Part shown: positions 4,975 to 63,999 of the stretch, piece after piece
Position numbering within the stretch: the first letter of the stretch is position 1
How the letters are laid out: each line of letters opens with the position of its first letter
DNA from: Runella rosea
GTDB lineage: Bacteria; Bacteroidota; Bacteroidia; Cytophagales; Spirosomataceae
DNA length: 64,000 bases
Direction: 5' to 3'
Assembly (NCBI RefSeq): GCF_003325355.1
Contig: NZ_CP030850.1
Span: forward strand, 5,263,501-5,327,500
Notes under the pieces: generated by a model
What the model was told of the DNA's origin: nothing
The model's database searches: none
Seen by the model: the letters and a program-made list of their open reading frames with translations, nothing else
Position numbers and translations under genes: made by a program

Positions 4975-4994
4975 TAATAGTAGAGGCTTGTTAG

Positions 4995-6854: not shown

Positions 6855-6879
6855 CACTTGAGTTATGTACTTTCTACCA

Positions 6880-6916
6880 AAAAAAGGAGCGATGCCCCGA
6901 AAGACACCGCTCCTTT
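6880..6916 (-). terminator. Terminator of the OmpA-family gene
   Basis: Read on the minus strand, ggagcggtgtctt / cggggcatcgctcc folds into an interrupted stem (ggagcg / cgctcc plus inner pairs) followed by seven T. It lies about 25 bp after the OmpA stop codon. A damaged copy is at 3268-3306. Confidence 0.85.
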
Positions 6917-6940
6917 TCTGAAATTATTTCTTACGAAACC

Positions 6941-7834
6941 TTATTTGCCTGAGTCAAACAATTGGAAGAATTGATCCAATTTTGGCAAAATAACGATTTC
7001 GGTACGACGGTTACGGCTGCGGTTTTGGCTGCTGTCGTTTGCTACTTTAGGCACAAACTCGCCACGGCCGCCAGCGGTCATGCGCTCAGGAGCTACACCG
7101 TATTTTTTCTGGAGGGCACGTACTACCGAAGTAGCGCGTTTTGCGCTCAAATCCCAGTTGTCTTCCAACACAGAAGCGCTGCTGTAGGGTACGCTATCGG
7201 TATGGCCTTCTACCAAGATGTCAAAATCTTTGCGGTCGTTTACGACTTTAGCAATTTTGCTCAACACGTTTTCAGCTTGGGTAGTGATGTCGTAGCTGCC
7301 GTATTTGAACAACATTTTGTCGGAAAGAGAGATATAAACCACTCCTTTTTTCACTTCGATGTTTACGTCTTCGTCGCTCACATTGTCCAATGAACGCTTG
7401 AGGTTCATCACAAGGGCCAAGTTAAGCGAATCCTTACGGCGCAGATTTGAATTCAAATCTTGGATGTAAGAGCTCTGACGGTTGAGGGCATCCAATGATT
7501 TCTTGATGCTTTCGGCGCCATCTTTGCTGACGATAGAGAGGTCAGAAAGACGATCTAATAAGTTGGTGTTTGTACGCTTCAAGTAAGCCAACTCATCTTC
7601 CATCGCTTTCAATTTGGCCCGCTCGTTGGTGATGTCACCATCTTTCATCTTGATTTGATTGCTCAAATCGCTGATGTCATTTTTAAGTTTTGCACTAAGT
7701 GCGTCACAATCAGCCTTATTCTTGTCAAGAAGAGCCTGAAGTTCAGCTTTATCTTTGGTCAGTTGAGCTAATTGTTTTTTGTTACAAGATGCGAATAATA
7801 ATACAGACAGGGAAAATAAAATAATCTTTCTCAT
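6941..7834 (-). CDS. OmpA/MotB-family peptidoglycan-binding lipoprotein
   Basis: A 297-residue outer-membrane lipoprotein. The lipobox LLFASC places the lipidated Cys at 17. Residues 20-115 form a long coiled coil (heptads of K/L/D, many ELQALLDK-like repeats). The OmpA C-terminal domain covers about 160-285, with VEGHTDSVPY, the WDLSAKRATSVV helix and NRRTEIVI, the residues that bind meso-diaminopimelate. The role is tethering the outer membrane to peptidoglycan. It is monocistronic, with its own terminator, and divergent from the P450 gene. Confidence 0.93.
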   Translation of the reverse strand: MRKIILFSLSVLLFASCNKKQLAQLTKDKAELQALLDKNKADCDALSAKLKNDISDLSNQIKMKDGDITNERAKLKAMEDELAYLKRTNTNLLDRLSDLSIVSKDGAESIKKSLDALNRQSSYIQDLNSNLRRKDSLNLALVMNLKRSLDNVSDEDVNIEVKKGVVYISLSDKMLFKYGSYDITTQAENVLSKIAKVVNDRKDFDILVEGHTDSVPYSSASVLEDNWDLSAKRATSVVRALQKKYGVAPERMTAGGRGEFVPKVANDSSQNRSRNRRTEIVILPKLDQFFQLFDSGK

Positions 7835-8041
7835 TGATTATGAGGTTTGAGGTGAATGGTTAAATTTAAGGTTAGAAATTAACAACGGTGTTGTCTTTAA
7901 TTAAATACATAAACACTTTTTTTGCTTTTTTTACTTGACATAAAAGAACACTTTTTAGGAAAAGTTCAAAAAAACGTCACAAAGATAGGCAAGGAAAATG
8001 ATATATCAGAAGGATATAGCAATATACTTTGCACTACAATC

Positions 8042-9457
8042 ATGCGTACTATTATGATGAATTACTCTAAATCGGCACTAAGTACTATCCCCGAAGCTAA
8101 AAAAAGTCCCTTTTTTGGAAATACATCGGCATTTGTGCGCAACCCTTTAGGCTTTCTTGAAAAAATGCAAAAAGAGTTTCGAGGGGCAGGTTTAGTGAGA
8201 CTAAATTTAGTGAACCGTGATTTTATCTTAGTGCTGAATCCAGAAGATACCAAGCACGTATTGCAAGAAAACAACCGCAATTACCATAAAAGCGAAGCGT
8301 ATAAAGTACTGGCCATATTTTTGGGTAATGGTCTGTTGACCAGCGAAGGCGATTTTTGGCGACGCCAACGCAAACTGACCCAGCCTGCTTTCTACAAACA
8401 GCGGCTGGCGTTGATGGTGGCGATGATGAATGATGAAGTGACGAACTTGGTACAGCGTTGGGAGCAACACGAGAAGACCGAAACCCTGAATATGTCGGAA
8501 GAGATGCTCAACCTGACTTTGAAAATTGTGACCCAAGCGCTGTTTAGTACCGATGTGAAACACCGCTTGGGCGGCATTTCGGAATCACTCAACGAGATTA
8601 TGCACTTTGCGGACAACACCCTCAAAAGTTTTATTCGTCTTCCATTGTATGTTCCCATACCGCGAAATTTGCGGTTCAAGCGGGCGGTAAAAAAAGTAGA
8701 ATCGGTTATTTACAGCATTATCGAAGGTCGCCGCCAAGAACTAAAACACAATCCCGAGGTTCGGTACAACGATTTGCTGGATATGTTGATCCATACACAA
8801 GACGAGGAAACGGGAGAAACCATGACCGACCAGCAGTTGAGGGATGAGGTAACGACGATTTTTATGGCGGGCCACGAAACCACCGCAAATGCCCTGTCTT
8901 GGGCATTTTATTTGCTGACAAAAAATGGTGACGTTCTCCATAAACTTCGGGAAGAAGTAAAAACAGTATTGGGCGAAGAAGGAATGCCGACGTTTGAAAA
9001 TGTGCGCGAACTGAAGTATACCTTTCAAGTGGTGCAGGAAGTGATGCGTCTGTATCCGCCAGCGTGGGTGATGGGGCGAAGGGCGTTGGGAGCAGACCAA
9101 TTGAGCGGTCATCCTATTGGGCCCAATACCTACCTACTGCTACCGATTTATTTGCTTCACCGCGACCCGTTGCATTGGCAAAAGCCTCACGAATTTTACC
9201 CCGACCATTTTTTGCCCGAAAACGTCAAACAACGCCCCACGTATGCTTATATTCCCTTTGGAGGTGGCCCCAGAATGTGCGTAGGCAATAATTTTGCATT
9301 GATGGAAATGCAGATTGTACTAGCCTTATTGGTGCGAAAGTTTGATTTTTTGCTCGTAGAGAGAAAGGATGCCGTGGCCGACCCACTGGTTACCTTACGA
9401 CCTAAAAAAGCCTTAAAAATGAATATAAAGGCACTTAGTCGCTTGGAAGTCAACTAG
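8042..9457 (+). CDS. Cytochrome P450
   Basis: A 471-residue P450 in the CYP102/CYP4-like clan style. The C-helix WRRQRKL, the I-helix oxygen motif AGHETT (276-281), the K-helix ExxR (EVMR, 333-336) and the heme loop FGGGPRMCVG with Cys413 as thiolate ligand are all intact. No membrane anchor or fused reductase is present, so it needs separate redox partners; none is adjacent. I start at the ATG at 8042; the frame opens at 7922, but the extra 40 residues lack P450 features and a tatactttg element, close to the Bacteroidetes -7 box, lies at 8023-8031. ATGs at 8054 and 8057 are alternatives. The substrate is unknown; fatty acids are a common guess for this group. Confidence 0.93.
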   Translation: MRTIMMNYSKSALSTIPEAKKSPFFGNTSAFVRNPLGFLEKMQKEFRGAGLVRLNLVNRDFILVLNPEDTKHVLQENNRNYHKSEAYKVLAIFLGNGLLTSEGDFWRRQRKLTQPAFYKQRLALMVAMMNDEVTNLVQRWEQHEKTETLNMSEEMLNLTLKIVTQALFSTDVKHRLGGISESLNEIMHFADNTLKSFIRLPLYVPIPRNLRFKRAVKKVESVIYSIIEGRRQELKHNPEVRYNDLLDMLIHTQDEETGETMTDQQLRDEVTTIFMAGHETTANALSWAFYLLTKNGDVLHKLREEVKTVLGEEGMPTFENVRELKYTFQVVQEVMRLYPPAWVMGRRALGADQLSGHPIGPNTYLLLPIYLLHRDPLHWQKPHEFYPDHFLPENVKQRPTYAYIPFGGGPRMCVGNNFALMEMQIVLALLVRKFDFLLVERKDAVADPLVTLRPKKALKMNIKALSRLEVN

Positions 9458-9618
9458 AAAGCTTTAAAATAATTGGCCAATTATTGAGCTTGGAGGAGCC
9501 TGTCAGCGTGCGCAAACGAATTTCGCGAATTGGAGGAAAGGTTTATGAGTCGATTTTACAAAAAATTCCTATTTTTACGCCCGTTTTCAACCCAAATTTG
9601 AATTTTACATCATATACA

Positions 9619-10602
9619 ATGAGACAAATACTTTTCCGTGAAGCCTTGCGTGAGGCCCTTTCTGAAGAAATGCGCCGCGACGCGAGCGTGTTTTTGATGG
9701 GTGAAGAAGTCGCCGAATATAACGGAGCCTACAAAGTAAGTCAAGGGATGCTTGATGAATTCGGACCTGAGCGGGTCATTGATACGCCCATTGCCGAATT
9801 GGGTTTTGCTGGGATTGGCGTGGGAGCTGGAATGAACGGCTTACGTCCCGTCGTGGAATTTATGACGTTCAACTTTTCGTTGGTTGCCATCGACCAAGTG
9901 ATTAACTCAGCGGCTAAGATTCTTTCGATGTCGGCGGGTCAATACAGCTGCCCGATTGTGTTTCGCGGTCCGACCGGAAACGCTGGTCAGTTGGGAGCGC
10001 AACACTCTCAAAACTTTGAAAACTGGTACGCCAATACGCCTGGATTGAAAGTAGTCGTTCCGGCCAATCCATACGATGCAAAAGGGCTGCTGAAAGCGTC
10101 TATCCGCGATAATGACCCCGTTATTTTTATGGAGTCAGAGTTGATGTACGGAGACAAAGGAGAAGTGCCCGAAGAAGAATACATTATTCCGTTGGGTAAA
10201 GCGGAAGTGAAAAAAGAAGGTACGGACGTGACCATTGTATCGTTTGGGAAGATGATTCCACGCGTGGTGAATCCTGCCATCGAAGAATTGGCAAAAATGG
10301 GCATTAATGCCGAGCTCGTTGACCTTCGCACGGTGCGCCCGATTGATTATGATACGGTTATTAATTCGGTAAAAAAGACAAATCGTTGCGTGGTGGTTGA
10401 AGAAGCTTGGCCGTTGTCGTCTATTGCTACTGAATTAACCTACATGATTCAACGCAAAGCATTCGATTATTTGGATGCTCCCGTGATTCGGGTCAACAAT
10501 ATGGATGTATCGTTGCCGTACGCGCCTACGTTGGTAGAAGCAACCTTGCCAAGCGTAAAGCGCACCATCGACGCGGTGAAGGCGGTTATGTATCGTAGTT
10601 AA
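9619..10602 (+). CDS. pdhB: Pyruvate dehydrogenase E1 component, beta subunit
   Basis: A 327-residue protein of exactly the family length. It has the transketolase pyrimidine-binding domain (VFLMGEEVAEYNGAYKVSQG near 27-46, DTPIAELGFAG) and the C-terminal domain (VTIVSFGKM, VDLRTVRPID, VVVEEAWP). With the alpha subunit it decarboxylates pyruvate using thiamine diphosphate and feeds acetyl groups to E2. I chose the ATG at 9619, where MRQILFREAL begins as in homologues; the open frame extends to a TTG at 9484 without similarity. The alpha and E2 genes are not in the window, so this is a stand-alone gene, as often in this phylum. Confidence 0.95.
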   Translation: MRQILFREALREALSEEMRRDASVFLMGEEVAEYNGAYKVSQGMLDEFGPERVIDTPIAELGFAGIGVGAGMNGLRPVVEFMTFNFSLVAIDQVINSAAKILSMSAGQYSCPIVFRGPTGNAGQLGAQHSQNFENWYANTPGLKVVVPANPYDAKGLLKASIRDNDPVIFMESELMYGDKGEVPEEEYIIPLGKAEVKKEGTDVTIVSFGKMIPRVVNPAIEELAKMGINAELVDLRTVRPIDYDTVINSVKKTNRCVVVEEAWPLSSIATELTYMIQRKAFDYLDAPVIRVNNMDVSLPYAPTLVEATLPSVKRTIDAVKAVMYRS

Positions 10603-10680
10603 ATCTAAAAAACCGTTAAATGTCAAGAGTTAAAGGGGATAGACTCGTTCTTCCGACGTTTAATTTCTCATTTTTTTAAG

Positions 10681-10703
10681 GCTCCTTTCGAGGAGCTTTT
10701 TTT
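10681..10703 (+). terminator. Terminator after pdhB
   Basis: A compact hairpin gctcct-ttcg-aggagc with a stable UUCG tetraloop, followed by seven T. It lies 78 bp after the pdhB stop. Confidence 0.92.
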
Positions 10704-10745
10704 GTTTGGCATGATTTTTTAATAAAATTCCTATCATAAAACTGC

Positions 10746-10753
10746 TATTTTTG
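10746..10753 (+). promoter_or_regulatory. Candidate Bacteroidetes -7 box
   Basis: tatttttg fits the TAnnTTTG consensus of the primary Bacteroidetes sigma factor and lies 35 bp before the next start codon. No convincing -33 TTG at the standard spacing was found, so this rests on the -7 match alone. Confidence 0.35.
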
Positions 10754-10787
10754 GAGTTATTCAATCGAATAATCAATTTTTCATACA

Positions 10788-11525
10788 ATGAAACAATTCA
10801 TAAAAACTTTCCTGATTGTAATCTTGGCCCAAGCGGGGCTGAACGCCCAAACGGGTGCCGTTCCCGTCGATACAATCTTTAATAACTTCTACAGTGCTAC
10901 GGGCGGAAAAGCCCTTTGGGATGCCGTACAGACTTACAACATCAAACAGGCCTATCGCGCAGGAACGGCCAATGATTATGACTTAGTAGTACAGGGGTCG
11001 TTGTCTCAGCAGGCGTTGTCTAAAATCCGTACCATCATGAAACGTGATTTTATTTACGGAATCAAAGGAACGGATGGATGGGTGAAAATCCCCATCGGTA
11101 GCCGCGACAAAGTCACTCAGTTTCAAACGAGCGATTTGAGTGAAAAAGAACGCGAAAATATGCGTCGTGAGCTAGGCGACTTGTTGGTGCCTTTCAGCAA
11201 TTATACCCAAAAAGGCTACATCGCTACGGTCGTAGGCACGGAGCAAGTAAACGGAAAACCCGCCTACCAAGTAGAAATGGAAGGAAAAGGAGTAAAATAC
11301 AACTTGTATTTTGACGTGGCAACGGGCTTACTGGTTCGGGAAAAACTGACGCTGCCCACCCGCGAGGTGCAAACCCGCGACCATACCCAGTACGCCAAGT
11401 CTACTTACGGCATTTCGTACCCTTCGGAGTCCACGTACGTGAGCAGTATTGATAAAAAGCCCGTAAAAGTCACAACCATCATGGAGTTTAACCCAACAAT
11501 TTCAGATAATACATTTGCAAGATAA
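10788..11525 (+). CDS. Secreted LolA-like/outer membrane lipoprotein-sorting family protein
   Basis: A 245-residue protein with a cleavable signal peptide (residues 1-20, LAQAGLNAQ). The mature part begins with DTIFNNFYSATGGKALWDAV, the opening helix seen in the LolA-like fold, followed by alternating beta strands (GWVKIPIG, AYQVEMEGKGVKYNLYFD, GLLVREK). This is the half-barrel that binds lipids or acyl chains in LolA, LolB and relatives. The exact role is unknown; it lies just upstream of the TamB-TamL operon on the same strand, 118 bp away, which hints at envelope biogenesis. Confidence 0.75.
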   Translation: MKQFIKTFLIVILAQAGLNAQTGAVPVDTIFNNFYSATGGKALWDAVQTYNIKQAYRAGTANDYDLVVQGSLSQQALSKIRTIMKRDFIYGIKGTDGWVKIPIGSRDKVTQFQTSDLSEKERENMRRELGDLLVPFSNYTQKGYIATVVGTEQVNGKPAYQVEMEGKGVKYNLYFDVATGLLVREKLTLPTREVQTRDHTQYAKSTYGISYPSESTYVSSIDKKPVKVTTIMEFNPTISDNTFAR

Positions 11526-11643
11526 AAGGTGCAAAGAACCGTTTCAGTGATGGCGTGGTTTATAAATCAGGCCATCACTCAAACACATACTTTTGAAGTG
11601 ATTAAACACCGTACCACCCGCGTGGTAGCATCGCCATACCAGT

Positions 11644-14600
11644 TTGAGAAAAGTAGGCAAAATAGTTCTTCTGGCCTTCATTGGGTTGTTATTGGTTTTG
11701 GGAACAGTCATCGTTTGGCTGCAAACAGGGTCGGGACAAGACTGGCTTACGCGTCGTGTGGTATCGTATCTGCGCCAAAAACTTCAGACCCGCGTTGAAA
11801 TCGCGCAGGTGCGTTTTCAGTTGCCCGACTGGATAGAGTTGCAAAATATTTATCTGGAAGATAAACAGCGAGATACCCTGCTGATGGGCAAAAGGGTATT
11901 TGTGGACTTGGACGTGTGGGGGTTGATGCAAAACAAAGTGGGCATTAATAATATTGAGCTAGAAAATGTATACCTCAACGTTCATCGTACTTTACCCGAT
12001 ACTACTTTCAATTTTGGATTCGTTACGCACGCATTTAGTAGTCCTGATAGCCAGCCCGATACCGCGTCAGCACCGCTGGATATGCGATTGGATGCCCTCA
12101 AACTCAAAAATGTAAGAGTATCGTACCGCGATGCCATCATCGGAACCGACGCGGCTCTTTGGATTGAAGAATCAAACGTAAATTTTTCGGCCTTTAATCC
12201 TTCCTACAATCGGTATCATTTGACCAATACGGTCTTGAATGCCGGCAAGGCTACAGTGAGAATGTACACCCCGCTTCGGCCTGCAAAACCTGGGACGGAC
12301 AGTTTGGTAACAATCAATTCTGCCGATTCATTGGATTTTAAATTGGGGAAAATTCAGGTTAAAAATTATGAAATTATCTACAACGACGAGACCCAAAAGC
12401 TGAAAGCAAGCGGTAAAATTGGGCAGTTGGATTTGGAAAGTGACTACATTCATTTGGATAAACTGGCGGTCTCGCTCAAAAAAGTAGGGGTACAAAATAC
12501 AAACTTGGCGTACCGAACCGAGAGCCTGAATGTAGACATAAGCCAATTTAATACGCAGCTGGAAAATTTTGTCTTTACCCCCGAACGTGCTGCTGGAAAG
12601 TTGAAATCGGCAAGTATGGTGGAGAAAAGGGGCTTTGTATTGCATCAGGTGCAAACCGATTTTGTTTACTCTACTACTCAAACCTCGCTCGAAAATCTGT
12701 TTATCCAAACCAACGAAACCATTCTTCGGAATCGGGCCGTTTTACGTTACCGTTCGCTGGATGAATTGACCGATAATATCGGAAATGTAGGCCTAGATGT
12801 GAACCTGCAAAACAGCCAAATCAGTTTTAAAGATGTGTTGACTTGGATGCCTACCCTCCGAAAAACGCCACCTTTTGACCGCAATCCAACGGCCATTGTC
12901 AAGGTAAATGGCATAGTGACGGGCAAGGTCAATCAATTAACCCTGAAGGCTGTCGATGTGCAAACCTTACAAGGAACTCACCTGCGCATGGAGGGGAAAA
13001 TTGCGGGATTGCCCGACCCTCAAAAAATGGCCTTAGATTTAAAAATCGGCGAATTTTCTACTACCCGGGCCGATATTGAACGTATTGCACCCAAAGATGC
13101 TCTGCCTGCTTCCATCGAGATTCCCGCGAAGCTACTGCTGACGGGTACCGTTAAAGGCAGCCTGAATGACCTTAATCTGAACACCCGTTTGGCCTCCGAT
13201 ATGGGCGACGCGACGTTTGAAGGGAATCTGAAAAATTTTGTCAGAGGTAAAAATGAAGGCTATCAGGGAACCCTAGTTCTAAAAGATTTTAACGCCGGAA
13301 AACTGCTGAAACAACCACCCGAACAACTCGGGAAACTTTCGTTGACGGCAACCGTCAATGGGCAGGGGATTGACCCAAAAACCTTGCAGGCTGTACTGAA
13401 AGGCACGGTTTTGAGCGCGGATGTCAAAGGATATACCTACCAAAATCTGAATCTTGAAGGTACGTATCGTCAGCAGGTAGCCGATTTTGTCGCCGCCATC
13501 GCCGACCCTAACGCTACCTTACGTCTCACAATTCAGGCTGATTTGCGGCCCGAATATCCCGTGATATCGGCGGAAGCGGATATTGATGAACTACGACTTA
13601 AACCCCTCAATCTGTACAGTGAAAACCTCGGGATTCGTGGTAAAATAAACGCTGTTTTTCCTTCCACCAACCCCGCCGACCCGCGCGGAACGTTGCTGAT
13701 TCAAGACGGGGTGTTGATTCAGGATGGGAAAGAGATTGCCTTGCAAACCCTGTCGTTGAACCTCGAAAACGAGAATGGAGAACGATTGGCGGTCATTGAT
13801 GCCCCCTTCCTCAAAGCCCGGGCCACGGGGGTGTTTCGGTATGAGCAACTTGCCGATATTTTATTGACCGAAATCAATCGTTACTTTGCCCTGCCCGCCA
13901 TTCAATACAAGCCCATCGCGGAGCCATATCGCTTTTCGTTGGAAGGAAAAGTAGCCAACCACGCCGCCTTGAAGGCATTTGTGCCTGAGTTGACACGGAT
14001 GGACACGGTACGGTTTTCAATGCAATTAAACAGTCAACAGGACACCACCCTCCGGCTGAAACTACAAGCACCGCTGATAGAATACGACAGTACGTTGGTA
14101 GAACGGGTCACTATTAACGTAGACGGGGCCAAAAATAAAGCCAATTATGCCGCTTACGTTGATAAAGTAACGTCGGGAACGACCAACATTCGACGCACGT
14201 ACCTGAATGGCGAAATCACCAACAATATCGTTGGGTTTAACTTAGTTCTCAAAGATTCGTTAGATAAAGACCGCCACGGAATGGAGGGTGTACTGGCTTC
14301 GATTGACAATAACTATCGCCTGCAATTACGGCGGCGGGGGCTGTTGCTTGATTATAAAAATTGGACCGCCGATTCCACGGGTTATGTGCAGTTCGGGAAA
14401 GACGGGCTATTGGCCAGGAAATTTACCATTAACCAAAATCGACAGCGACTTTTTGTGAACAGCCTGACCGATACACCTAATGGCCCGCTGAGAATCGAAA
14501 TGGATAGCCTTAATCTACGCCCTTTGGTGGGTATTATGGCCGATTCTACGCTTATGGGCGGGGTACTAGCGGGTAACGTTATTTTGCAGAATTATACACA

Positions 14601-55772: not shown

Positions 55773-57287
55773 ATGATTAAATTAAACAAACTCGTTTACG
55801 CTTTCGGCGTGCTTGTGCTATTTTCTAAAATTGCGTTGGGCCAAGCGGTACGGCCCAATGTCATCATTATCTACGCCGACGATTTGGGTTACGGTGATGT
55901 AAGTTGCTACGGAGCCAAAAAAGTAGCTACGCCCAACATTGATAAACTAGCCAAAGCAGGCATACGCTTTACCAATGCCCACACGACTTCAGCTACCTGC
56001 ACGCCGTCGCGTTACTCAATGCTGACTGGTGAATACGCTTGGCGCAAGCCGGGCACGGGCGTAGCCACGGGCGACGCCTCCGCGCTGATTCTGCCTGGAC
56101 GCAGTACGTTGCCGCTGGTTTTTCAGAAGGCAGGCTACAAAACGGGCGTGGTAGGTAAGTGGCATTTGGGCCTCGGGCCGCAGGGTGGGCCCGATTGGAA
56201 TGGCGAAATCAAACCGAGCCCGTTGGATATTGGTTTTGATGAGTCGTTTATTATGGCTGCTACTGGCGACCGCGTGCCGTGTGTCTACGTTGAAAACCGT
56301 CGGGTGGTAAATCTTGACCCTGCCGACCCAATCAAGGTAAGTTTTAAGGAACCCATCGGCAATGAACCCACGGGGCGCGCCAATCCTGAATTGTTGAAAA
56401 TGAAACATTCGCACGGGCATGATTTTACGATTATCAACGGCATCGGTCGCATTGGCTACATGACGGGTGGGAAATCAGCGCGGTGGAAGGATGAAGACAT
56501 GGCCGATATTTTTACCGAAAAAGCCGTTTCGTTCATCGAAAAACACCAAGCCGAGCCTTTCTTTTTGTATTTCTCTACCCAAGATATTCACGTACCGCGC
56601 GTACCCCATGAGCGTTTCACGGGCAAAAGCGGTATGGGACCGCGCGGCGACGTTATTTTGCAATTGGACTGGACGGTGGGCGAAGTGATGAAAACGTTGG
56701 ACAAACTGAAGCTGACCCATAACACCCTCGTCATTTTCTCCAGCGATAATGGCCCCGTGGTAGATGATGGCTACCACGACCAAGCCGTTGAGTTGCTCAA
56801 TGGACATACGCCCGCGGGGGCATTGCGCGGTGGCAAATACAGCGCTTTTGATGCGGGTACGCGCGTGCCGTTCATTGTGCGTTGGCCGGGACAAGTAAAA
56901 GCGGGAGTTTCCAATGCGTTGGTGAGCCAAGTAGACTTATTGGCTTCTTTTGCGGCATTGACGGGGCAAAAATTTGACGCAACCACAGCCCCCGACACCA
57001 AAGATTACTTGTCGGCTTTTTTGGGTAAAGACAAAAAGGGGCGTGATTATTTGATAGAACATGCGGGTACTTTTTCCATTATCAAAGGCGACTGGAAATA
57101 CATTGAGCCGAGCAAAGGCCAAAAAATGAGCGTTCAGACCAATACTGAGCTTGGCAATGACCCGCAGCCGCAGCTATATAATCTGGCCAAAGACATTGGG
57201 GAGAAAAATAATCTGGCTGAGGCTAATCCTGAGAAATTGAAGGAGTTACAGGTGGAATTGCAGGAAGTGAAGGAGAAGAAGAGATAA
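55773..57287 (+). CDS. S1-type sulfatase
   Basis: A 504-residue secreted sulfatase (signal peptide 1-24). The metal motif YADDLGYGDV is at 34-43, Cys76 in CTPSR is the formylglycine residue, GKWHLGLGPQGG follows, and SSDNGPVVDDGY is intact. This is the arylsulfatase A-like subtype, different from the two in the SusCD operon, and it stands alone on the opposite strand. It may act on the same substrate, but has its own transcription. The convergent repeat core near 57410 acts as its terminator. Confidence 0.92.
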   Translation: MIKLNKLVYAFGVLVLFSKIALGQAVRPNVIIIYADDLGYGDVSCYGAKKVATPNIDKLAKAGIRFTNAHTTSATCTPSRYSMLTGEYAWRKPGTGVATGDASALILPGRSTLPLVFQKAGYKTGVVGKWHLGLGPQGGPDWNGEIKPSPLDIGFDESFIMAATGDRVPCVYVENRRVVNLDPADPIKVSFKEPIGNEPTGRANPELLKMKHSHGHDFTIINGIGRIGYMTGGKSARWKDEDMADIFTEKAVSFIEKHQAEPFFLYFSTQDIHVPRVPHERFTGKSGMGPRGDVILQLDWTVGEVMKTLDKLKLTHNTLVIFSSDNGPVVDDGYHDQAVELLNGHTPAGALRGGKYSAFDAGTRVPFIVRWPGQVKAGVSNALVSQVDLLASFAALTGQKFDATTAPDTKDYLSAFLGKDKKGRDYLIEHAGTFSIIKGDWKYIEPSKGQKMSVQTNTELGNDPQPQLYNLAKDIGEKNNLAEANPEKLKELQVELQEVKEKKR

Positions 57288-57406
57288 TTAAATTGGGTAA
57301 TTAAATCTACATTTTTTTCAATAAAAGAAGTAATTGGTAGAATTTTTGGCAATTTTTTGCCCAAAATGAGGCATAAAAGCCATCTGTTTATGCGTCAAAA
57401 ACAGAT

Positions 57407-57485
57407 AAAACAACAAAAGCCGACCTCTTTCGAAGTCGGCTTTGTTATTGGAAACCTTAGTCATTAAACTTTAATCGCAATATCA
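57407..57485. repeat. Copy 1 of the rpsJ terminator/stop-codon repeat
   Basis: The core reads aaaacaacaaaagccgac, loop ctctttcgaa, gtcggctttgttattgg, then aaaccttagtcattaaac and tttaat. On the minus strand the last part, with tcgcaatatcaac, translates VDIAIKV and stops, matching the S10 end VDVEIKV. So this 79-bp segment is a copy of the 3' end of rpsJ with its terminator, 6.3 kb from the real gene. It forms a working hairpin terminator for both strands and marks the outer edge of the module array. Confidence 0.85.
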
Positions 57486-57515
57486 ACTGTAGCGTATCTG
57501 AGGAAATACTACACT

Positions 57516-58256
57516 TTATATCATTGCCTTCATTTGTTTTATATAAAACTGATATTGCCTATCAATTTCCTTTGAAGCTTGCATTTGATCAATGTAAAAA
57601 GTATTTTTTTTAGCTTCTGGATAATCTTTTAATGCTTTTTCCATATTACGTGTATTTTCTTCCTTTTGGCGGATTGCTTCTTCACTAGCACTTAAAGCTA
57701 ACTTTACTGTAGATATAAGCTTTTGTTTTGGCCAATGATTTTTTAATTTTTTAAAACCATGGTAAAAAAATGCAGGACTTATATTTTGCTCTTGAGCAAG
57801 TATATCTATATAATACCCTAATGCATCAAGCGCATCATCAGAATTATCTTTTAGTATATCGGTCTTTGCTATTACTGAAAGTGCACAAAATTGCCGTAAA
57901 TATGAGTAGTCAGCATCCTCCTTATTTTGATCTAGAAAAGGCCTTATTTTTTCATCCGCCTCTTTCCATAATAATTTAGTACTATAATCAGGACGTTTCT
58001 GGCTATTCATAAAAGGAAGCAATACACCACTTTTATATATTTTTGTCATAAAAGACATATATTGCTCTTTCTCTAACTCTTTTCCATGAGAGTTAATTTT
58101 CATTAATTTCGTCAAATCATCTTCCTCAAATGCAATTCTTAAAGATTGCGCACTTGATTTATTTATAGAACTATTAGTTGAAGTTTTCTCGATTCCGTTG
58201 GGATGGCATGCAACTACAATAACAGACATGATAAAAAAATAAATTGCAGTTTTCAT
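57516..58256 (-). CDS. Lipoprotein of a duplicated small family (copy B)
   Basis: A 246-residue lipoprotein (VIVVAC, Cys17). The mature part is helical: an N-terminal Ser-rich stretch, then LDALGYYIDILAQEQNISPAFFYHGFKKLKNHWPKQKLIS-type helices (about 145-185) and a charged C-terminal coil (EAIRQKEENTRNMEKAL, QMQASKEIDRQYQFYIKQM). It aligns along its whole second half with the lipoprotein at 58695-59411. Each copy follows a Cys-rich secreted peptide gene. Function unknown; AT-rich codons differ from the flanking genes. Confidence 0.78.
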   Translation of the reverse strand: MKTAIYFFIMSVIVVACHPNGIEKTSTNSSINKSSAQSLRIAFEEDDLTKLMKINSHGKELEKEQYMSFMTKIYKSGVLLPFMNSQKRPDYSTKLLWKEADEKIRPFLDQNKEDADYSYLRQFCALSVIAKTDILKDNSDDALDALGYYIDILAQEQNISPAFFYHGFKKLKNHWPKQKLISTVKLALSASEEAIRQKEENTRNMEKALKDYPEAKKNTFYIDQMQASKEIDRQYQFYIKQMKAMI

Positions 58257-58280
58257 AGTTAAATTGTTTAATGGTTCAAA

Positions 58281-58582
58281 CTAAAGTGGAGGAGGAATAC
58301 AGCCCGGACAATGAAGGTTTAAGATTGATGGATCAACATAATCAGGTCTAAAACCTAAGCTTATTCCATTTGAGTTATAAACGTAAGAATTAAAAGTTAC
58401 CATGGCGAATTCACGGCAGCAGGGTAAAAGATCTGATTGCATCCAACAATGTTGAAAATATGCTCCAGGTATTGGTTCAAATGGAATTTTACAGCAACAT
58501 TGCATTAATAAACCTGTTACCTGCGCTCCAACGCTATTACATGTTAGTAGTACGATAACTAAAAAAACTTTAATTTTTTCAT
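58281..58582 (-). pseudogene. Cys-rich secreted peptide, start frameshifted in a poly(A) run (copy B)
   Basis: From the ATG at 58505 the frame gives a 74-residue product starting MQCCCKIPFEPIPG, but 25 codons upstream in the same frame encode a perfect signal peptide (KIKVFLVIVLLTCNSVGAQ). Its natural ATG at 58582 is followed by six A and reads out of frame to a stop after seven codons; seven A would restore MKKIKVFLVIV. The mature part has eight cysteines (CCC, QHCW, PCC, LHCPGC). It may be off by phase variation, slippage, a mutation, or a sequencing error. It is paralogous to 59439-59717. Confidence 0.7.
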
Positions 58583-58694
58583 GATTGGTTTTAGTGTTTT
58601 AGTGTAAAAAAATAATGACAACGGCTTTATTGCATGGATTAAGCCCTGCTATGATAAATAACCGAGGATTGGGGAGTTTGATTGAGGCAGCTAT

Positions 58695-59411
58695 TTACTC
58701 CTCAATCAAAGTTTTTAGCTTTTTGAGAAAATAAACATTTTCCTCGTGAGTTTTAATCATCTTTCCTACTACTTTTTCTGCTCGTGCCAGTTCTTGCGGT
58801 GGTAATCCTTTTGTGTTATCGCTAAATCTTTGCTTTATCTGCGTGATTGGTTCTTCCATTCGACTTACTTCAGCCAGTGTACGGTCATAGGTTATCTGAG
58901 CGTATTCTTTGATTTTGTCTTTGGACCAGTAGCTTTTCAATTGATTGATTCCCAAATAAATGTGCCCGGAGTGTACTCCTTTGTTTTTTAGTAGTATTTC
59001 GGTATAGAAAGCAATTCTTTCTAATGACTTCTGGTCTGACTTAAGAAGAAGCCCAAAATCCTTCAAGATAATTTGTGCAAGATGTTCTTCAAATACAAAT
59101 TTACTCTCTCCATCATTGAAGGAATGATAGTTTGCTTGAAAAAGCGAATCCATTTGCTCCCAGGATTTTTGTTTTTTTGCCTTCTCTATATCCTCTTCCA
59201 TGACAGGAATTCCTTTGTCTCTCAACTCGGAAAGCGTACCGACTGAAACGGGGTGTCCATCTCGGGGAGGGATAGAATAAGTTAATAAATCAATCTCGGC
59301 CCCTTCACGTGTACTTTTATCTTTTTGGGCATTTTGGGAGTAGCTTACAGGCTCCTTGCAAGAGACCTGCACTAATGAAAGAAAAAACAAAAAAATCAGA
59401 TTGTACTTCAT
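58695..59411 (-). CDS. Lipoprotein of a duplicated small family (copy A)
   Basis: A 238-residue lipoprotein (VQVSC, Cys18). It shares with copy B the segment IAFYTEILLKNKGVHSGHIY, the helix NQLKSYWSKDKIKEYA and a C-terminal charged coil (AEKVVGKMIKTHEEN). The N-terminal half (PPRDGHPVSVGTLSELRDKG) is not shared. It begins 28 bp after the Cys-rich gene upstream, so the two are co-transcribed. Two lipoprotein-plus-peptide pairs in a row point to a functional partnership, for example protection against or presentation of the peptide; this is a guess. Confidence 0.78.
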   Translation of the reverse strand: MKYNLIFLFFLSLVQVSCKEPVSYSQNAQKDKSTREGAEIDLLTYSIPPRDGHPVSVGTLSELRDKGIPVMEEDIEKAKKQKSWEQMDSLFQANYHSFNDGESKFVFEEHLAQIILKDFGLLLKSDQKSLERIAFYTEILLKNKGVHSGHIYLGINQLKSYWSKDKIKEYAQITYDRTLAEVSRMEEPITQIKQRFSDNTKGLPPQELARAEKVVGKMIKTHEENVYFLKKLKTLIEE

Positions 59412-59438
59412 AGCTTTAGTTTATTTTATTGTTAGATA

Positions 59439-59717
59439 TTATGCAGGAAATCCACAACATTTTCCTTTTGCAAAACTTCCTGATGTATATTCCCAATATT
59501 GTAAAGTACCATATTTATAATACGCTACAGTACCAAGCTCCATTGGAGTACATGTGCAGGCGTCGCCTAAACCAGGCCCACAGCCATAACACCAAATTTC
59601 CTGAGTAAAACCCAGACCGTATAAAGGCACTAATGTACAGCAATGCATACTGTTTGCAACCTGCGCGATTGTTGAAAACCCAATTGTGAGTACGAACAAT
59701 TTCAACATTTTTTTCAT
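59439..59717 (-). CDS. Cys-rich secreted peptide (copy A)
   Basis: A 92-residue precursor with a signal peptide (MKKMLKLFVLTIGFSTIAQ, 1-21) and a mature part of about 70 residues with nine cysteines (MHCC, WCYGCG, ACTC, KCC). Density and spacing suggest disulfides or metal clusters. It is in frame from its ATG plus seven A, unlike copy B. Its start codon is the last part of the long repeat block shared with the second module. Function unknown; small Cys-rich secreted proteins in this size range include toxins and signals, but nothing here proves either. Confidence 0.8.
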   Translation of the reverse strand: MKKMLKLFVLTIGFSTIAQVANSMHCCTLVPLYGLGFTQEIWCYGCGPGLGDACTCTPMELGTVAYYKYGTLQYWEYTSGSFAKGKCCGFPA

Positions 59718-59894
59718 AATTTTACACTGGTTTAAATGATTAAATTAATTGTTTAAACTCCCAAGAGAAGCTCCGCACGGTGGCCAAACTGACGCGGGGC
59801 TTTCTCATTTTTTGAACTATGCGCAATAGTCAGGGGCAAAATTCTGCAGAATATTTTTATCTCGCCTCCACCCAAAGTTTGATTTTTCTCCACC

Positions 59895-60185
59895 CTAGGG
59901 TTGATTTCTCTTCTCTTTAAAACCAATGTGTGCCATTTTGAGCAAGTAGCGCCGAAAACCTTCTTTTCCTTTTAAACCCAATTTTCGGATGATGTGATTT
60001 TTGTGGGTCTTGACAGTAGCGATTGAGCAGCATAGCTCTTCGGCTATTTCAGCATTTGTTTTGCCGCTCATGGCCGCATAAAGAACTTTTAGTTCCTGAT
60101 GCGTAAGGAGTGTATTGTTACGGAGAAGAAATATTTCCAGTGCATCTAATTCTTCGAAGTATTCGGGTTGTTGTTTGGCTGTCAT
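59895..60185 (-). CDS. Stand-alone LuxR-type HTH regulator (module 1)
   Basis: A 96-residue protein that is only a GerE/LuxR C-terminal DNA-binding domain with a short N-terminal helix (YFEELDALEIFLLRNN). HTH residues LTHQELKVLYAAMSGKTNAEIAEEL and the recognition helix SIATVKTHKNHIIRKLG are intact. No receiver or sensor domain is present. It precedes the cargo genes on the same strand and so likely controls them or itself. The copy at 63088-63378 differs at only a few residues (CCS/CRS, KGKE/NGKD). Confidence 0.88.
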   Translation of the reverse strand: MTAKQQPEYFEELDALEIFLLRNNTLLTHQELKVLYAAMSGKTNAEIAEELCCSIATVKTHKNHIIRKLGLKGKEGFRRYLLKMAHIGFKEKRNQP

Positions 60186-60494
60186 GTATTTGGTTGTTGT
60201 TTATAGAATGTTCTTTTAAACACCAAATCAACTATTTGTCAGTCAACTTTATTTATGAATCCGGGGGATGGGATATCATTCTGACAAACAGCTTTTTTGG
60301 CAAGGCTGTCAACATTGTTTATCAGAAAGTAGGGTGGGTGAGATGCGGAAGCCCCGTATTGTCGGTGCGGTAAGAATACGATACGCCTGCGCATAAACTA
60401 CGCCAAATATACAGTAAGCCTGTGGATGGTTACAAAGGATAATCTAAAAAGTTATCAAACGTTTTTGGGGGCGGCAGGGGCTCATTTTACCCCT

Positions 60495-60565
60495 AAAACA
60501 ACAAAAGCCGACTTCGAAAGAAGTCGGCTTTTGTTATGGGAAACCTTAGTCATTAAACTTTAATT
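60495..60565. repeat. Copy 2 of the rpsJ terminator/stop-codon repeat
   Basis: The same core as at 57407 and 63685, but the terminator loop is in the opposite orientation: gccgac-ttcgaaagaa-gtcggc here, gccgac-ctctttcgaa-gtcggc in the other two. The taaagtttaatgactaag tail is kept, and the stop codon of the gene at 60560 lies inside it. It ends module 2 and begins module 1 (minus-strand order). Confidence 0.85.
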
Positions 60566-61105
60566 TAACATTTTTTGGATGATGCGTTCCCTACCGTCAA
60601 AAGGATAGGTAATCAGCTTGCTGTTTGAATCTCCCTTAAAAAAGTATCTGTTTTTAACAAGTTGCCCATTGATATTTTCCCATTTTACCGCCCATCCATT
60701 TTCTTCTTCGAGTCTTTTAAAACGGCCTTCTACCAGTGTATCTACGGCTTGCAAGTAGGCCGCAGTAAATTGCGCATTGTACATATACGAGCTGCTGAAC
60801 AGGACCAGTACGCCATCAATGAAAGTGTATTGTGTAGGAATACAAATACTGCTCTTTATAAAATAGGAACTTTGTTGTTCTTTAATGGCCTCTAAATGAA
60901 TGGTATATCCTTGGGTGGTGCGTCCGTAGGTCACAAATACAATACCGGTACTGTCGGTAAGAATCTGTTTGAGTTTGGACTCGGCAATGTAATCCTCGAA
61001 GAGTTTGAGATGAACACGGTCTTTTACAGTCACCTGAGGGACAGATTGCGCACACACAGGGAGGTGGATTAAAACCCCAAAAAAGAATAACAGGTTGAAT
61101 TTCAT
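60560..61105 (-). CDS. Small secreted protein, paralogue of its neighbour
   Basis: A 181-residue protein with a signal peptide (1-19, LPVCAQ). Its core SVPQVTVKDRVHLKLFEDYI and DSTGIVFVTYG match the protein at 61139-61630 (PVPQITLQNPELEQKLRHYI, DTSGIVVLSAG), and CIPTQYTFIDGVLVLFSSS matches CYTLIDGALVLIRSG. It is a predicted alpha/beta domain with no recognised catalytic motif. The pair arose by tandem duplication and is cargo of module 2. Its stop is supplied by the terminator repeat. Confidence 0.78.
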   Translation of the reverse strand: MKFNLLFFFGVLIHLPVCAQSVPQVTVKDRVHLKLFEDYIAESKLKQILTDSTGIVFVTYGRTTQGYTIHLEAIKEQQSSYFIKSSICIPTQYTFIDGVLVLFSSSYMYNAQFTAAYLQAVDTLVEGRFKRLEEENGWAVKWENINGQLVKNRYFFKGDSNSKLITYPFDGRERIIQKMLN

Positions 61106-61138
61106 GGTATTGCAAAAGTTTTGGTGCAGCAGGTAGTA

Positions 61139-61630
61139 TCATTTGATGAAAGTGCCATTGTAGATACCACCTTCGATGTGGGTGGTGGCCTCTTTGATGT
61201 TTTTGGGCGCAACCACCCGCCGCCCTCTCTTGGGCGTGTAGTACCCTTTGGTGAGCCGAGCAACGGCTTGATGAAATGCCTTGGGATACTGAAAGCCCAA
61301 CTCAAAGCCCGACCGTATCAGCACCAAAGCCCCGTCGATGAGGGTATAACAGGCAGGAATTACCCGTTTTTTAAACATAGAAGGGGGAGTTTGGCGGATG
61401 GCCATCAGATGCATTGGTAGTTCATCAAGAAGTCCACCGGCAGAAAGCACTACGATACCCGAGGTGTCGGGCAAAAAACCTTTGTTTCGTGACTCCTGAA
61501 TGTAATGCCGGAGTTTTTGTTCGAGTTCGGGATTTTGGAGTGTTATCTGCGGCACGGGCTGAGCAGCTCCCCGCAACACTATCAGCATCAGGAGACTCAA
61601 AAAAGCACATTTCATAAAAGGATAATTCAT
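61139..61630 (-). CDS. Small secreted protein, paralogue of its neighbour
   Basis: A 163-residue exported protein (signal to about residue 24, VLRGAAQ), with the same domain as the next gene. A start at the ATG at 61615 (MKCAFLSLLM) is equally possible. It lies 12 bp after the JAB-like gene, so it is co-transcribed with it. In other bacteria, small secreted proteins after a peptidase or toxin gene often act as its inhibitor; there is no direct evidence here. Confidence 0.75.
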   Translation of the reverse strand: MNYPFMKCAFLSLLMLIVLRGAAQPVPQITLQNPELEQKLRHYIQESRNKGFLPDTSGIVVLSAGGLLDELPMHLMAIRQTPPSMFKKRVIPACYTLIDGALVLIRSGFELGFQYPKAFHQAVARLTKGYYTPKRGRRVVAPKNIKEATTHIEGGIYNGTFIK

Positions 61631-61641
61631 TTGAAAATGAG

Positions 61642-62911
61642 TTACTGACAGTTTATTTTTTGGGTTTTTGTTATTGATTGGGATCCCGTGCCATTAAACT
61701 TTATTATGTTACTACACGATACGATATACTGTTCAAATCCATAATAATGGTTTGCCATGGTATAATCTTGTGGACTTGGTTGGTCATCTAGATAAGGGGC
61801 ACCAAAAAAAGAGCCATTGCAATAGGGATGGGTATGGATCATTCCCTTAATTCCGTATTGTTGGATAGTGGGATCGTCTGGATTGGTTGAATAGTCATAT
61901 ACAATGATATTTTTTTGCTCGTCTCTAAAGCTTAGAATAACTCTCCCTTGATTATCATAGTATGTAGGCGAAAAGTGAGAAATAGTCGAATTATTTGGAA
62001 AAGTAGGTGCGATGATTATCTGATTATCATCGGTCAGAAAACCACTTATTTCTTTGGTAAGCATCGGGCTGTTATCTCTATACCCAATCTGCCACATTCG
62101 CTCATAACCCGAGCACTTGTTAGGGATTATTTCATATTTAAAATCATTGGGGAAAAGGCTAATGGAATTAGGAGCTGCTGAAATAGGGATCCAATGGGGT
62201 GGGGTGGTTCCTGTATTAATCCCTAAAGATTCCGTATAAACACAAACGTAATTTATATTACTGCAATCCAGCACGGAAACTAGTATTTCCTGCCCTTCGT
62301 AAACTGCACCTACATAAGCTGTTCGGCAATTGGGAGCCCAATAGCAAGTAGTATTATTAAGACGTCCATTCTTTTTTGATTTTACATCCTTCAACAAGGA
62401 AAATTCTGTAACCCCTGCTATGATTTTGTCATTTTTTATTGAAAAGCCTCCCAATAAATTATTGTCCCAATCTCTAAAGAGCACATAACCGGAAAACTTG
62501 CGATTTAGAAGTTCACTTTTGTTTTTCCTATCAAATTGCCATACATACTCAGCAATCACAGCTCTATTGCTCCCGCTTTTATCTTTATAAATCCAAAGTT
62601 GCTTGTAACCGGATGGTGTATCTCCCTTTTTATGGTGAACAATTGGTAATGCAACAATTTTTTGAGTTGGACTGAATTGATAATCAAAGGCATAATCCCA
62701 GTTGATGCGTCTGTCAAATATTGTGTCTTTTTCTCCTTTTCTGGCATTTTTAATGTGCGTCTGTTCAAACCATGCTTTGGCATCTCCAATTGATAGTTCA
62801 TTATTATGTACGATAAAATTTTCTGTTTTATCACACGATACCATCCAAAAAAGGAGTGCAATTAAAGAAAAACTCTTTTTGACAAAGAAAAGAAGTCTGT
62901 ATTTTTTTCAT
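61642..62911 (-). CDS. JAB/JAMM-like lipoprotein, start shifted by one base in a poly(A) run
   Basis: The 400 residues from the ATG at 62844 begin MVSCDKTENF. Upstream in the same frame, LLFFVKKSFSLIALLFW completes an ideal lipoprotein signal (WMVSC), but the ATG at 62911 is out of frame because it is followed by seven A; six A would give MKKYRLLFFVKK and an intact lipoprotein. The mature protein has an N-terminal Bacteroidetes-specific domain (LSIGDAKAWFEQTH, WDYAFDYQF, LNRKFSGYVLFRDWDNN) and a C-terminal JAMM-like part with HTHP (337-340 from 62844) and SPQD (357-360), spaced wider than in typical JAB enzymes. Such domains are zinc peptidases, also found in toxin systems. It may currently be off; translation from 62844 would give a cytoplasmic form. 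Confidence 0.72.
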
Positions 62912-63087
62912 ACTTTTACACTGGTTTAAATGATTAAAAAATTGTTTAAACTCCCAAGAGAAGCTCCGCCCGGCGGCCAAACTGAAGCGGGGCTTTCTCA
63001 TTTTTTGAACTATGCGCAATAGTCAGGGGCAAAATTCTGCAGAATATTTTTATCTCGCCTCCACCCAAAGTTTGATTTTTCTCCACC

Positions 63088-63378
63088 CTAGGGTTGATTT
63101 TTCTTTTCTTTAAAACCAATGTGAGCCATTTTGAGCAAGTAGCGCCGAAAACCATCTTTTCCATTTAAGCCCAATTTTCGGATGATGTGATTTTTGTGGG
63201 TCTTGACAGTAGCGATTGAGCGGCATAGCTCTTCGGCTATTTCAGCATTTGTTTTGCCGCTCATGGCCGCATAAAGAACTTTTAGTTCCTGATGCGTAAG
63301 GAGTGTATTGTTACGGAGAAGAAATATTTCTAATGCATCTAATTCTTCGAAGTATTCGGGTTGTTGTTTGGCTGTCAT
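63088..63378 (-). CDS. Stand-alone LuxR-type HTH regulator (module 2)
   Basis: A 96-residue LuxR-type DNA-binding domain, 4 or 5 residues different from the copy at 59895-60185. HTH residues are unchanged. It is the first gene downstream of rpsJ, after its terminator, so transcription needs its own leader promoter. The two copies likely bind the same site, so each could regulate both modules. Confidence 0.88.
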   Translation of the reverse strand: MTAKQQPEYFEELDALEIFLLRNNTLLTHQELKVLYAAMSGKTNAEIAEELCRSIATVKTHKNHIIRKLGLNGKDGFRRYLLKMAHIGFKEKKNQP

Positions 63379-63684
63379 GTATTTGGTTGTTGTTTATAGA
63401 ATGTTCTTTTAAACACCAAATCAACTATTTGTCAGTCAACTTTATTTATGAATCCGGGGGATGGGATATCATTCTGACAAACAGCTTTTTGGGCTAGGCT
63501 GTCAACATTGTTTATCAGAAAGTAGGGTGAGATGCGGAAGCCTCGTATTGTCGGTGTGGTAAGAATACGATACGCCTGCGCATAAATTGCGCCAAATATA
63601 CAGTAAGCCTGTGAAGAGCTACAAATAATATTCTAAAAACTTATCAAACGGTTTTGGGGGTGGGAAGAGGGTCATTTTGCCCCT

Positions 63685-63741
63685 AAAAACAACAAAAGCC
63701 GACCTCTTTCGAAGTCGGCTTGGTGGTTGGAAACCTTATCA
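63685..63741 (-). terminator. Native rpsJ terminator (copy 3 of the repeat core)
   Basis: On the minus strand the stop codon is followed by tgataaggtttcc and a hairpin gccgac / gtcggc with a 10-nt loop and the tail ttttgttgttttt. With the stop-codon region it is the original from which copies 1 and 2 derive, as only this copy continues into a real S10 gene. Confidence 0.88.
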
Positions 63742-63999
63742 TTAAACTTTAATCTCAACATCAACGCCACTTGGCAATTCGAGTTTCATCAAAGCATCTA
63801 CGGTTTTGGCGCTTGACGAGTGAATGTCAATCAGGCGCTTGTAGGTGCAAAGTTGGAACTGCTCACGTGATTTCTTGTTCACGTGGGGTGAGCGAAGTAC
63901 CGTGTAGATTTGCTTTTCTGTAGGCAATGGAATCGGGCCGCTAACCACAGCACCCGTTGATTTCACCGCCTTTACAATGCGGTCCGCCGATTTGTCCAC
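63742..63999 (-). CDS. rpsJ: 30S ribosomal protein S10, 5' end outside the window
   Basis: The last 85 codons of S10: [49 protein letters not shown] and the end GVDVEIKV are diagnostic. About 16 N-terminal residues are missing at the window edge. S10 is part of the 30S head and of transcription antitermination with NusB. In most bacteria rpsJ is followed by rplC; here a terminator and foreign-looking modules follow, so rpsJ ends its transcript. Confidence 0.96.

What the first reader, a model, noticed from the sequence alone, without database searches (positions are those of the whole stretch)
57407..63999. Module array built onto the 3' end of rpsJ
Three copies of a ~70-bp core (rpsJ stop-codon region plus terminator) occur at 57407, 60495 and 63685. 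Between them are two modules of about 3.1 kb, each with a near-identical LuxR-HTH block and different secreted cargo. Copy 1 still encodes VDIAIKV-stop, a vestige of the S10 end. This is the footprint expected if elements insert at the rpsJ 3' end and regenerate it, as integrative elements do at tRNA genes, but no integrase is present and the target would be a ribosomal-protein gene. Seen: repeats and module order. Inferred: insertion mechanism.
Basis: partly seen in the sequence, partly recalled or inferred. Interest (0 to 1): 0.85.

Follow-up and report, generated by a model that had tools for sequence, protein, structure and literature searches.

The report
Swappable gene modules downstream of rpsJ
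Just past the end of a ribosomal-protein gene in a Runella bacterium, sets of secreted-protein genes bounded by copies of that gene's own tail differ from species to species with no integrase gene found beside them, probably because they are added, swapped and lost by recombination between those copies.

Summary
Three copies of the rpsJ 3' end plus terminator (57407, 60494, 63686) and no others were found in this 7.16-Mb Runella genome. They bound two ~3.1-kb modules with the same LuxR-HTH/leader block (about 95% identical) and unrelated secreted cargo.

Thirteen Runella genomes show an insertion hotspot. The rpsJ-sulfatase gap is 58 bp (G007) to 13.3 kb and differs in all eight genomes where it could be measured. 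Extra rpsJ-tail copies were seen in 4 of 13. The cleanest case is G012: 0.83 kb between 102-bp direct repeats (100/102), the distal copy 101/101 identical to G000's present rpsJ tail. In G002 an old rpsJ tail still precedes an older, broken LuxR block, as if displaced together.

No integrase was found nearby (partial test). Cargo sets at rpsJ in some species sit at the atpG 3' end in others; the LuxR genes show no sign of moving along, though their tree is poorly resolved.

Best explanation (0.6): modules bounded by rpsJ-tail repeats, added, removed and mixed by recombination at those repeats and the LuxR/leader block. Insertion at rpsJ is well supported; the enzyme is inferred. Closest precedents: integrase-less hotspots and the microcin H47 island.

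The parts
63742..63999 (-). rpsJ (30S ribosomal protein S10), cut by the window edge; anchor gene of the locus
   Evidence: NCBIfam NF001861 128.3 bits
63686..63765 (-). rpsJ 3' end + terminator of the living gene (tail type TAATGATAAGG...ACCACC)
63088..63378 (-). LuxR/GerE HTH protein, 96 aa, module 2
   Evidence: 96% identical to the module-1 copy, for which Pfam gives GerE 3.1e-15
62905..62999 (-). leader block 2 of module 2: hairpin and conserved stretch up to the start codon
61642..62844 (-). module 2 cargo: 400-aa ORF, lipoprotein-like by eye; the ATG at 62908-62910 is out of frame with it across a poly-A run
   Evidence: no Pfam or NCBIfam family at threshold
61139..61630 (-). module 2 cargo: 163-aa protein, secreted by eye, paralogue of the next
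60560..61105 (-). module 2 cargo: 181-aa protein, secreted by eye; its stop codon lies in the rpsJ-derived core 2
60494..60564 (-). core 2: displaced rpsJ 3' end + terminator, loop inverted
59895..60185 (-). LuxR/GerE HTH protein, 96 aa, module 1
   Evidence: Pfam GerE 3.1e-15
59710..59806 (-). leader block 2 of module 1
59439..59717 (-). module 1 cargo: Cys-rich 92-aa protein, secreted by eye
58695..59411 (-). module 1 cargo: 238-aa protein, lipoprotein by eye; relatives at the atpG locus of G006 and G009
58281..58582 (-). module 1 cargo: small Cys-rich reading frame (74-aa ORF 58281-58505); an ATG at 58580-58582 is out of frame with it across a poly-T run (by eye)
57516..58256 (-). module 1 cargo: 246-aa protein, lipoprotein by eye; 64% identical relative in G009:C15
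57407..57487 (-). core 1: displaced rpsJ 3' end (VDIAIKV-stop) + terminator
57288..57406 (.). flank between core 1 and sulfatase, shared with G011 and G012 right of their core copies
55773..57287 (+). convergent sulfatase, the conserved far border of the hotspot
   Evidence: Pfam Sulfatase 1.3e-55

Best explanation
The 3' end of rpsJ in Runella is an insertion and exchange hotspot. A module is: rpsJ tail and terminator, LuxR-type regulator, conserved leader, secreted cargo, then a second copy of the rpsJ tail. Shown by comparison: content and module number differ between species; the repeats at the far ends of modules are rpsJ tails; rpsJ itself stays whole; cargo families occupy the rpsJ site in some species and the atpG 3' end in others. 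Best reading of the sequences: a new module pushed an older tail and module away from rpsJ (G002), and blocks are mosaic. Inferred: the moves are made by recombination between repeats - rpsJ tail against rpsJ tail (single crossover of an excised or incoming module, loss by the reverse), or homologous recombination in rpsJ with an illegitimate far junction - using host enzymes, and cargo is exchanged behind the resident LuxR/leader block. Inferred: LuxR and the leader hairpin set expression of the cargo.
For: Gap rpsJ-sulfatase 58 to 13,335 bp, eight of eight different. G012: 0.83 kb between 102-bp repeats, 100/102 identical; distal copy 101/101 identical to G000's living rpsJ tail. G002: core 2, then an old LuxR block that falls with G004's (76.9% identity; unrooted split with 100/100 support) and not with the four new-type blocks (64.7-68.5%). 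Mosaic: the 75 nt lying 30-105 nt after the terminator are 73/75 alike between G002's old block and G000's module 2, beyond that only 19/38, 97/140 and 118/207. G011's core has core 2's body and core 1's flank, as module loss between repeats or insertion into an empty site would leave. Cargo relocation: 163/181 pair at rpsJ in G000, G002, G011 and at atpG in G006, G009, not found in the other 8 of 13; 238-aa family at rpsJ in G000, G011 and at atpG in G006, G009, with weak relatives elsewhere in G002 and G009; G003's rpsJ-site TonB receptor is 84% identical to G006's atpG-site one, while the best LuxR match between those two sites is 54%. On the contigs that carry rpsJ, the nearest listed PF00589 row is about 181 kb away (G006; list truncated).
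Against: Repeats of 70-100 bp are short for efficient RecA recombination (recalled). Three far junctions within 50 bp of the rpsJ stop could mean a real attachment site. The first 30 nt after the terminator do not share the mosaic match (20/29). No intermediate was seen. Contig ends lie close to rpsJ in G002, G004, G008 and G012, so arrays may be longer. Not every ORF in the intervals was tested for recombinases, and a transposase-like ORF stands in the G004 interval (by eye). Donors are unknown; that the present rpsJ tail is foreign is not shown.
Confidence: 0.6

Rival explanations
1. Non-autonomous integrative elements: a site-specific recombinase supplied in trans recognises the rpsJ 3' end (attB) and the copy carried by a circular module (attP), regenerating rpsJ, as ICEs do at rplL, rpsI and rpmG.
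For: Gene kept whole, direct repeats at both ends, an empty order in G007, ribosomal-protein targets known for tyrosine integrases, and PF00589 genes in 13 of 13 Runella genomes that could act in trans (11-18 rows in eleven genomes, 3 each in G005 and G008).
Against: No integrase among the ORFs tested in and beside arrays, nearest listed row on an rpsJ contig about 181 kb off (truncated). Repeats start at different points of rpsJ (45, 24 and about 20 nt before and including the stop) and reach 102 bp, beyond the 12-54 bp reported for streptococcal ICEs. Blocks look mosaic.
Confidence: 0.15
2. In-place tandem duplication of rpsJ end + LuxR + cargo, followed by replacement or divergence of the cargo; no insertion from outside.
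For: LuxR blocks of modules 1 and 2 in G000 are 95.4% identical, as unequal-crossover products would be; a LuxR block is old at this site (G004).
Against: The 176-aa ORF between G012's near-perfect repeats has no relative among the ORFs of the fetched loci. G002's two LuxR blocks are only 68.5% alike although its core 2 tail differs from G003's rpsJ tail by three differences in 67 columns. Cargo families have close relatives at other loci in other species.
Confidence: 0.2
3. The array is a decayed remnant with no present mobility: the repeats are relics and the differences are old losses.
For: Broken LuxR in G002, truncated leader in G011, out-of-frame cargo starts in the window (by eye). A remnant of the 92-aa gene in G011 is seen by eye only; phmmer did not find it.
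Against: G012's repeats are almost perfect and the 163/181 genes have open frames in all five genomes that hold them.
Confidence: 0.05

Closest known systems
[quoted passage not shown] passages read)
   Same: Fixed place between conserved genes, content that turns over, no recognisable mobility genes found.
   Different: Here the anchor gene's own tail is copied into the array, so the locus carries internal repeats and holds discrete modules with a constant regulator.
Microcin H47 genomic island of E. coli (PMC3191183: abstract, outline and passages; PMC5426353: passages)
   Same: Small island of secreted-product genes, long imperfect direct repeats (148/144 bp, 76%), no recombinase of its own, hybrid junctions.
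   Different: Excision and integration were detected by experiment there and not here; no multi-module array with a shared regulator or ribosomal-gene repeat is described in what I read.
Streptococcal ICEs at the 3' ends of rplL, rpsI and rpmG (PMC4701971; passages read)
   Same: Target is the 3' end of a housekeeping ribosomal-protein gene whose product is unchanged; direct repeats.
   Different: Those encode a tyrosine integrase and conjugation genes and have 12-54 bp repeats; no such gene was found in these modules.
Homology-facilitated illegitimate recombination (PMC3240628; passages read)
   Same: Homology at one end, non-homologous junction at the other; inserts of about 1 kb, near the size in G012.
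   Different: Generally with a deletion of similar size and mostly a 3-10 bp micro-homology; neither could be tested because donors are unknown.

Membership tests
Integrative element with its own integrase (ICE/IME/genomic island) | integrase gene in or beside the element | tested here: not met
   Pfam on six window cargo proteins, the module-1 LuxR and several cargo proteins of relatives; nearest listed PF00589 row on an rpsJ contig about 181 kb away, list truncated
Integrative element with its own integrase (ICE/IME/genomic island) | direct repeats that include the target gene's 3' end, gene left whole | tested here: met
Integrative element with its own integrase (ICE/IME/genomic island) | constant short att core | tested here: not met
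   start of the repeat in rpsJ differs between G012, G000 core 1 and G000 core 2
Integrative element with its own integrase (ICE/IME/genomic island) | circular excised form | not testable with these tools
   no reads available
Integrase-less HR hotspot | variable content between the same border genes | tested here: met
   8 of 8 genomes with both borders on one contig differ in gap length
Integrase-less HR hotspot | signs of homologous recombination at the locus | tested here: inconclusive
   mosaic stretch 73/75 then 19/38, 97/140, 118/207, but 20/29 in the first block; recombination rates in rpsJ/fusA were not measured
H47-type island mobile without its own recombinase | imperfect direct repeats and no recombinase gene found | tested here: met
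H47-type island mobile without its own recombinase | excision and integration observed | not testable with these tools
   needs PCR or reads
Integron gene-cassette array | attC recombination sites plus an integron integrase | not tested
   the repeat is a gene end plus a terminator hairpin; attC features were not scored

The most novel reading that the evidence does not exclude
Runella keeps a set of fixed expression sites (rpsJ end, atpG end and probably more), each with a resident small HTH regulator and the same leader hairpin, into which interchangeable secreted-cargo cassettes are loaded, stacked and swapped by recombination between copies of the anchor gene's tail and the leader: a non-autonomous cassette system that uses an essential gene's own end as its recombination site.
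Probability: 0.25. Interest if true: 0.75.

Novelty: new variant of a known kind. Interest (0 to 1): 0.52.

Why it matters
It gives a sequence-level case of how integrase-less hotspots can grow: the anchor gene's tail is duplicated with a module, which creates the homology for the next exchange. It also links that to a family of loci in which secreted cargo changes place between species, which makes the question of how such hotspots turn over testable with ordinary strains and PCR.

Tried and rejected
Phage or plasmid origin: no relative of the 163-aa cargo in 72,556 plasmid records; pattern scans of viral contigs confirmed no relative of the 163/181 family or of the LuxR protein; the four phage records hit by the LuxR protein match at most 68% of it at 35-47% identity. 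Known RNA family: 17 weak Rfam matches, none at its gathering score. Defence system: of nine proteins only the LuxR one matched PADLOC models, over its HTH. Cargo function: none of the six window cargo proteins tested reaches a Pfam or NCBIfam threshold; PDB search gave only nucleoporins at E 0.13 or worse for the 163/181 family and nothing for the 400-aa protein; structure prediction did not run to the end. A similar gene-end duplication at atpG: I looked by eye at the 260 bases before the atpG stop in six genomes and saw no rpsJ core; no repeat search of that locus was run. The flank tree is weak: the upstream stretch used for G005 and G006 gives branch lengths near 10 and is not sound, so only the five-genome group is used. 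The LuxR protein tree leaves all rpsJ-site rows unresolved. RNAalifold on the first leader alignment did not give the hairpin, because two sequence types were out of register; a trimmed alignment with a stem named by me supports it, but two of its five shuffle measures show no excess (pairs with double change 1 against 1.6, pair types 4 against 4.3).
Full report
WHAT IS THERE. The window ends inside rpsJ, on the minus strand (S10 model 128.3 bits). Reading in the rpsJ direction the order is: rpsJ - tail and terminator - LuxR HTH (96 aa) - leader - 400, 163 and 181 aa - core 2 - LuxR HTH - leader - 92, 238, a small Cys-rich frame and 246 aa - core 1 - 119 bp - convergent sulfatase. At E <= 0.001 the core is found at these three places only in the 7,162,093-base genome. 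The LuxR/leader block has no other close copy there: the next hits are 68% over about 380 bp and 77% over about 100 bp, at 3.34 Mb. The cargo proteins have signal or lipoprotein N-termini by eye; none of the six window cargo proteins tested reaches a Pfam or NCBIfam threshold.

THE LOCUS IN 13 RUNELLA GENOMES. The genus name comes, where two of the three records with a relative of the LuxR protein are titled Runella sp. (the third, a Coriobacteriales MAG, matches at 41% over the HTH). Each of the 13 same-genus genomes (G000-G012) has one rpsJ match. In eight, rpsJ and the sulfatase lie on one fetched contig stretch; the gap is 58 bp in G007, 3,820 in G011, 6,001 in G003, 6,454 in G000, 7,631 in G001, 8,143 in G010, 9,985 in G009 and 13,335 in G006. 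The other five were not measured: contig ends in G002, G004, G008 and G012, another context in G005. G001, G006, G009 and G010 hold other genes there, among them a protein of about 413 aa that they share. LuxR relatives at rpsJ are in G000 (two), G002 (two, one with an internal stop), G011, G003 and G004 (shortened). Extra rpsJ-tail copies were seen in 4 of 13: G000 (two), G002, G011 and G012. These four fall with G003 in one five-genome group of the flank tree (support 90/99, drawn open by the program; the tree is weak elsewhere).

EVIDENCE FOR INSERTION AT THE rpsJ END. (a) G012: a 102-bp repeat, from 45 nt before the end of rpsJ (stop codon included) through the terminator, stands on both sides of 0.83 kb that hold one 176-aa ORF; 100 of 102 positions agree, and the distal copy is 101/101 identical to the living rpsJ tail of G000. 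It is followed by a flank that aligns with those of G000 and G011. (b) G002: behind core 2 lies an older LuxR block. It is 76.9% identical to G004's rpsJ-side block and 64.7-68.5% to the four new-type blocks, which are 91.5-95.4% identical to each other; the unrooted split has 100/100 support. G002's core 2 tail differs from the rpsJ tail of G003 by three differences in 67 columns, while G002's own living tail is of the other type. So an old rpsJ tail and an old module appear to have been displaced together. (c) G007 shows the empty order (58 bp), but its flank does not align with that of G000, G011 and G012, and it could be a loss. (d) G011 joins the body of core 2 to the flank of core 1, which is what loss of module 1, or a single insertion into an empty site, would leave.

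EVIDENCE ON MECHANISM. The blocks look mosaic: in the 75 nt that lie 30-105 nt after the terminator, G002's old block matches G000's module 2 at 73/75, but the next stretches match at 19/38, 97/140 and 118/207, where G004 is nearer (20/38, 119/145, 151/191); the first 30 nt match less well (20/29). The far junctions in rpsJ differ (45, 24 and about 20 nt), and in core 2 the cargo gene's stop codon lies in rpsJ-derived sequence. The terminator loop is inverted in core 2 of G000 and in G011's core. PF00589 integrases exist in 13 of 13 genomes, but on the contigs that carry rpsJ the nearest listed row is about 181 kb away (G006); the list was truncated and not every ORF of the intervals was scanned. 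I therefore favour recombination between repeats, by host functions, over a site-specific integrase; the enzyme is inferred.

CARGO CHANGES LOCUS. A second locus, next to the 3' end of atpG (Pfam ATP-synt 8.1e-104 in G006), holds small LuxR genes (two in five genomes, one in G003), the leader (truncated in G009) and variable cargo in the six genomes fetched: G000, G003, G006, G009, G011, G012. The 163/181-aa pair is at rpsJ in G000, G002 and G011 and at atpG in G006 and G009; the other 8 of 13 gave no match. The 238-aa family is at rpsJ in G000 and G011 and at atpG in G006 and G009, with weak relatives elsewhere in G002 and G009; G000's copy is closer to the atpG-site copies (about 62%) than to G011's rpsJ-site copy (49%). 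G003's rpsJ-site set of lipoprotein, 172 aa, TonB receptor and DUF4249 protein (Pfam for the last two) has relatives at the atpG site of G006: TonB receptors 84%, DUF4249 proteins 55%, the two small proteins 37% and 32%. The 246-aa protein has a 64% relative at a further place in G009, and the 400-aa protein has 29-31% relatives in G002:C234 and G006:C16. The LuxR proteins of the two sites are not more alike than expected if they stayed put (G003 rpsJ against G006 atpG at best 54%, against other rpsJ-site proteins 55-63%), but their tree leaves the rpsJ-site rows unresolved.

LEADER. The stretch before the first cargo gene ends in a conserved hairpin and a conserved run to ATGAAA. On 16 sequences the outer stem, drawn by me from these sequences, is paired in 89.9% of cells against 45-66% for slid versions; one pair is A-U in eight and C-G in eight; two of five shuffle measures show no excess. 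A model built on them finds 18 places in 6 of 13 genomes: the 16 it was built from and two weak ones. That it regulates expression is inference.

CONTEXT. In G014 and G028 the gene after rpsJ is ribosomal L3 (Pfam), and G030 looks the same by eye. In the Runella genomes and in G018, G019 and G032 rpsJ is followed by other genes, judged by eye from ORF lists. The rpsJ 3' end is thus free as a landing place in Runella.

VERDICT. The feature is real and the insertion reading is largely right. It is a new variant of a known kind, the integrase-less hotspot, with an unusual twist: the tail of an essential ribosomal gene is copied with a module. Two searches for print on rpsJ as a target listed 4 of 4 and 6 of 31 papers, of which I saw titles and the start of abstracts; none of these describes it.

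Noticed in passing
window 62901-62910 and 58570-58582: Two cargo genes have a start codon and a signal-peptide frame separated by a homopolymer run (by eye). Relatives with other lengths exist. Slippage (phase variation), decay or assembly error cannot be told apart.
   Followed up: partly
window 60512-60533: The loop of the rpsJ-type terminator is inverted in core 2 (also in G011's core) relative to the other copies compared.
   Followed up: partly
L128 (G011:C12) 7788-13157 and L129 (G003:C4) 2772-8725: A further locus with the same leader behind a protein with a cNMP-binding domain, followed by lipoprotein-like ORFs, a TonB-receptor-like and a DUF4249-like ORF (the last three by eye).
   Followed up: partly
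L131 (G006:C16) 7034-13471: A relative of the 400-aa cargo lies about 2.5-5 kb from three tandem tyrosine recombinases, a layout recalled from recombinase-in-trio elements.
   Followed up: no
L080, L082, L083 versus Runella loci: rpsJ is followed by the ribosomal L3 gene in G014 and G028 (G030 by eye) but not in Runella, G018, G019 and G032.
   Followed up: partly
G000:C1:1804733-1804819 and G012:C65:50324-50410: Two weak leader-model matches (E 5.9e-4) outside the known loci.
   Followed up: no
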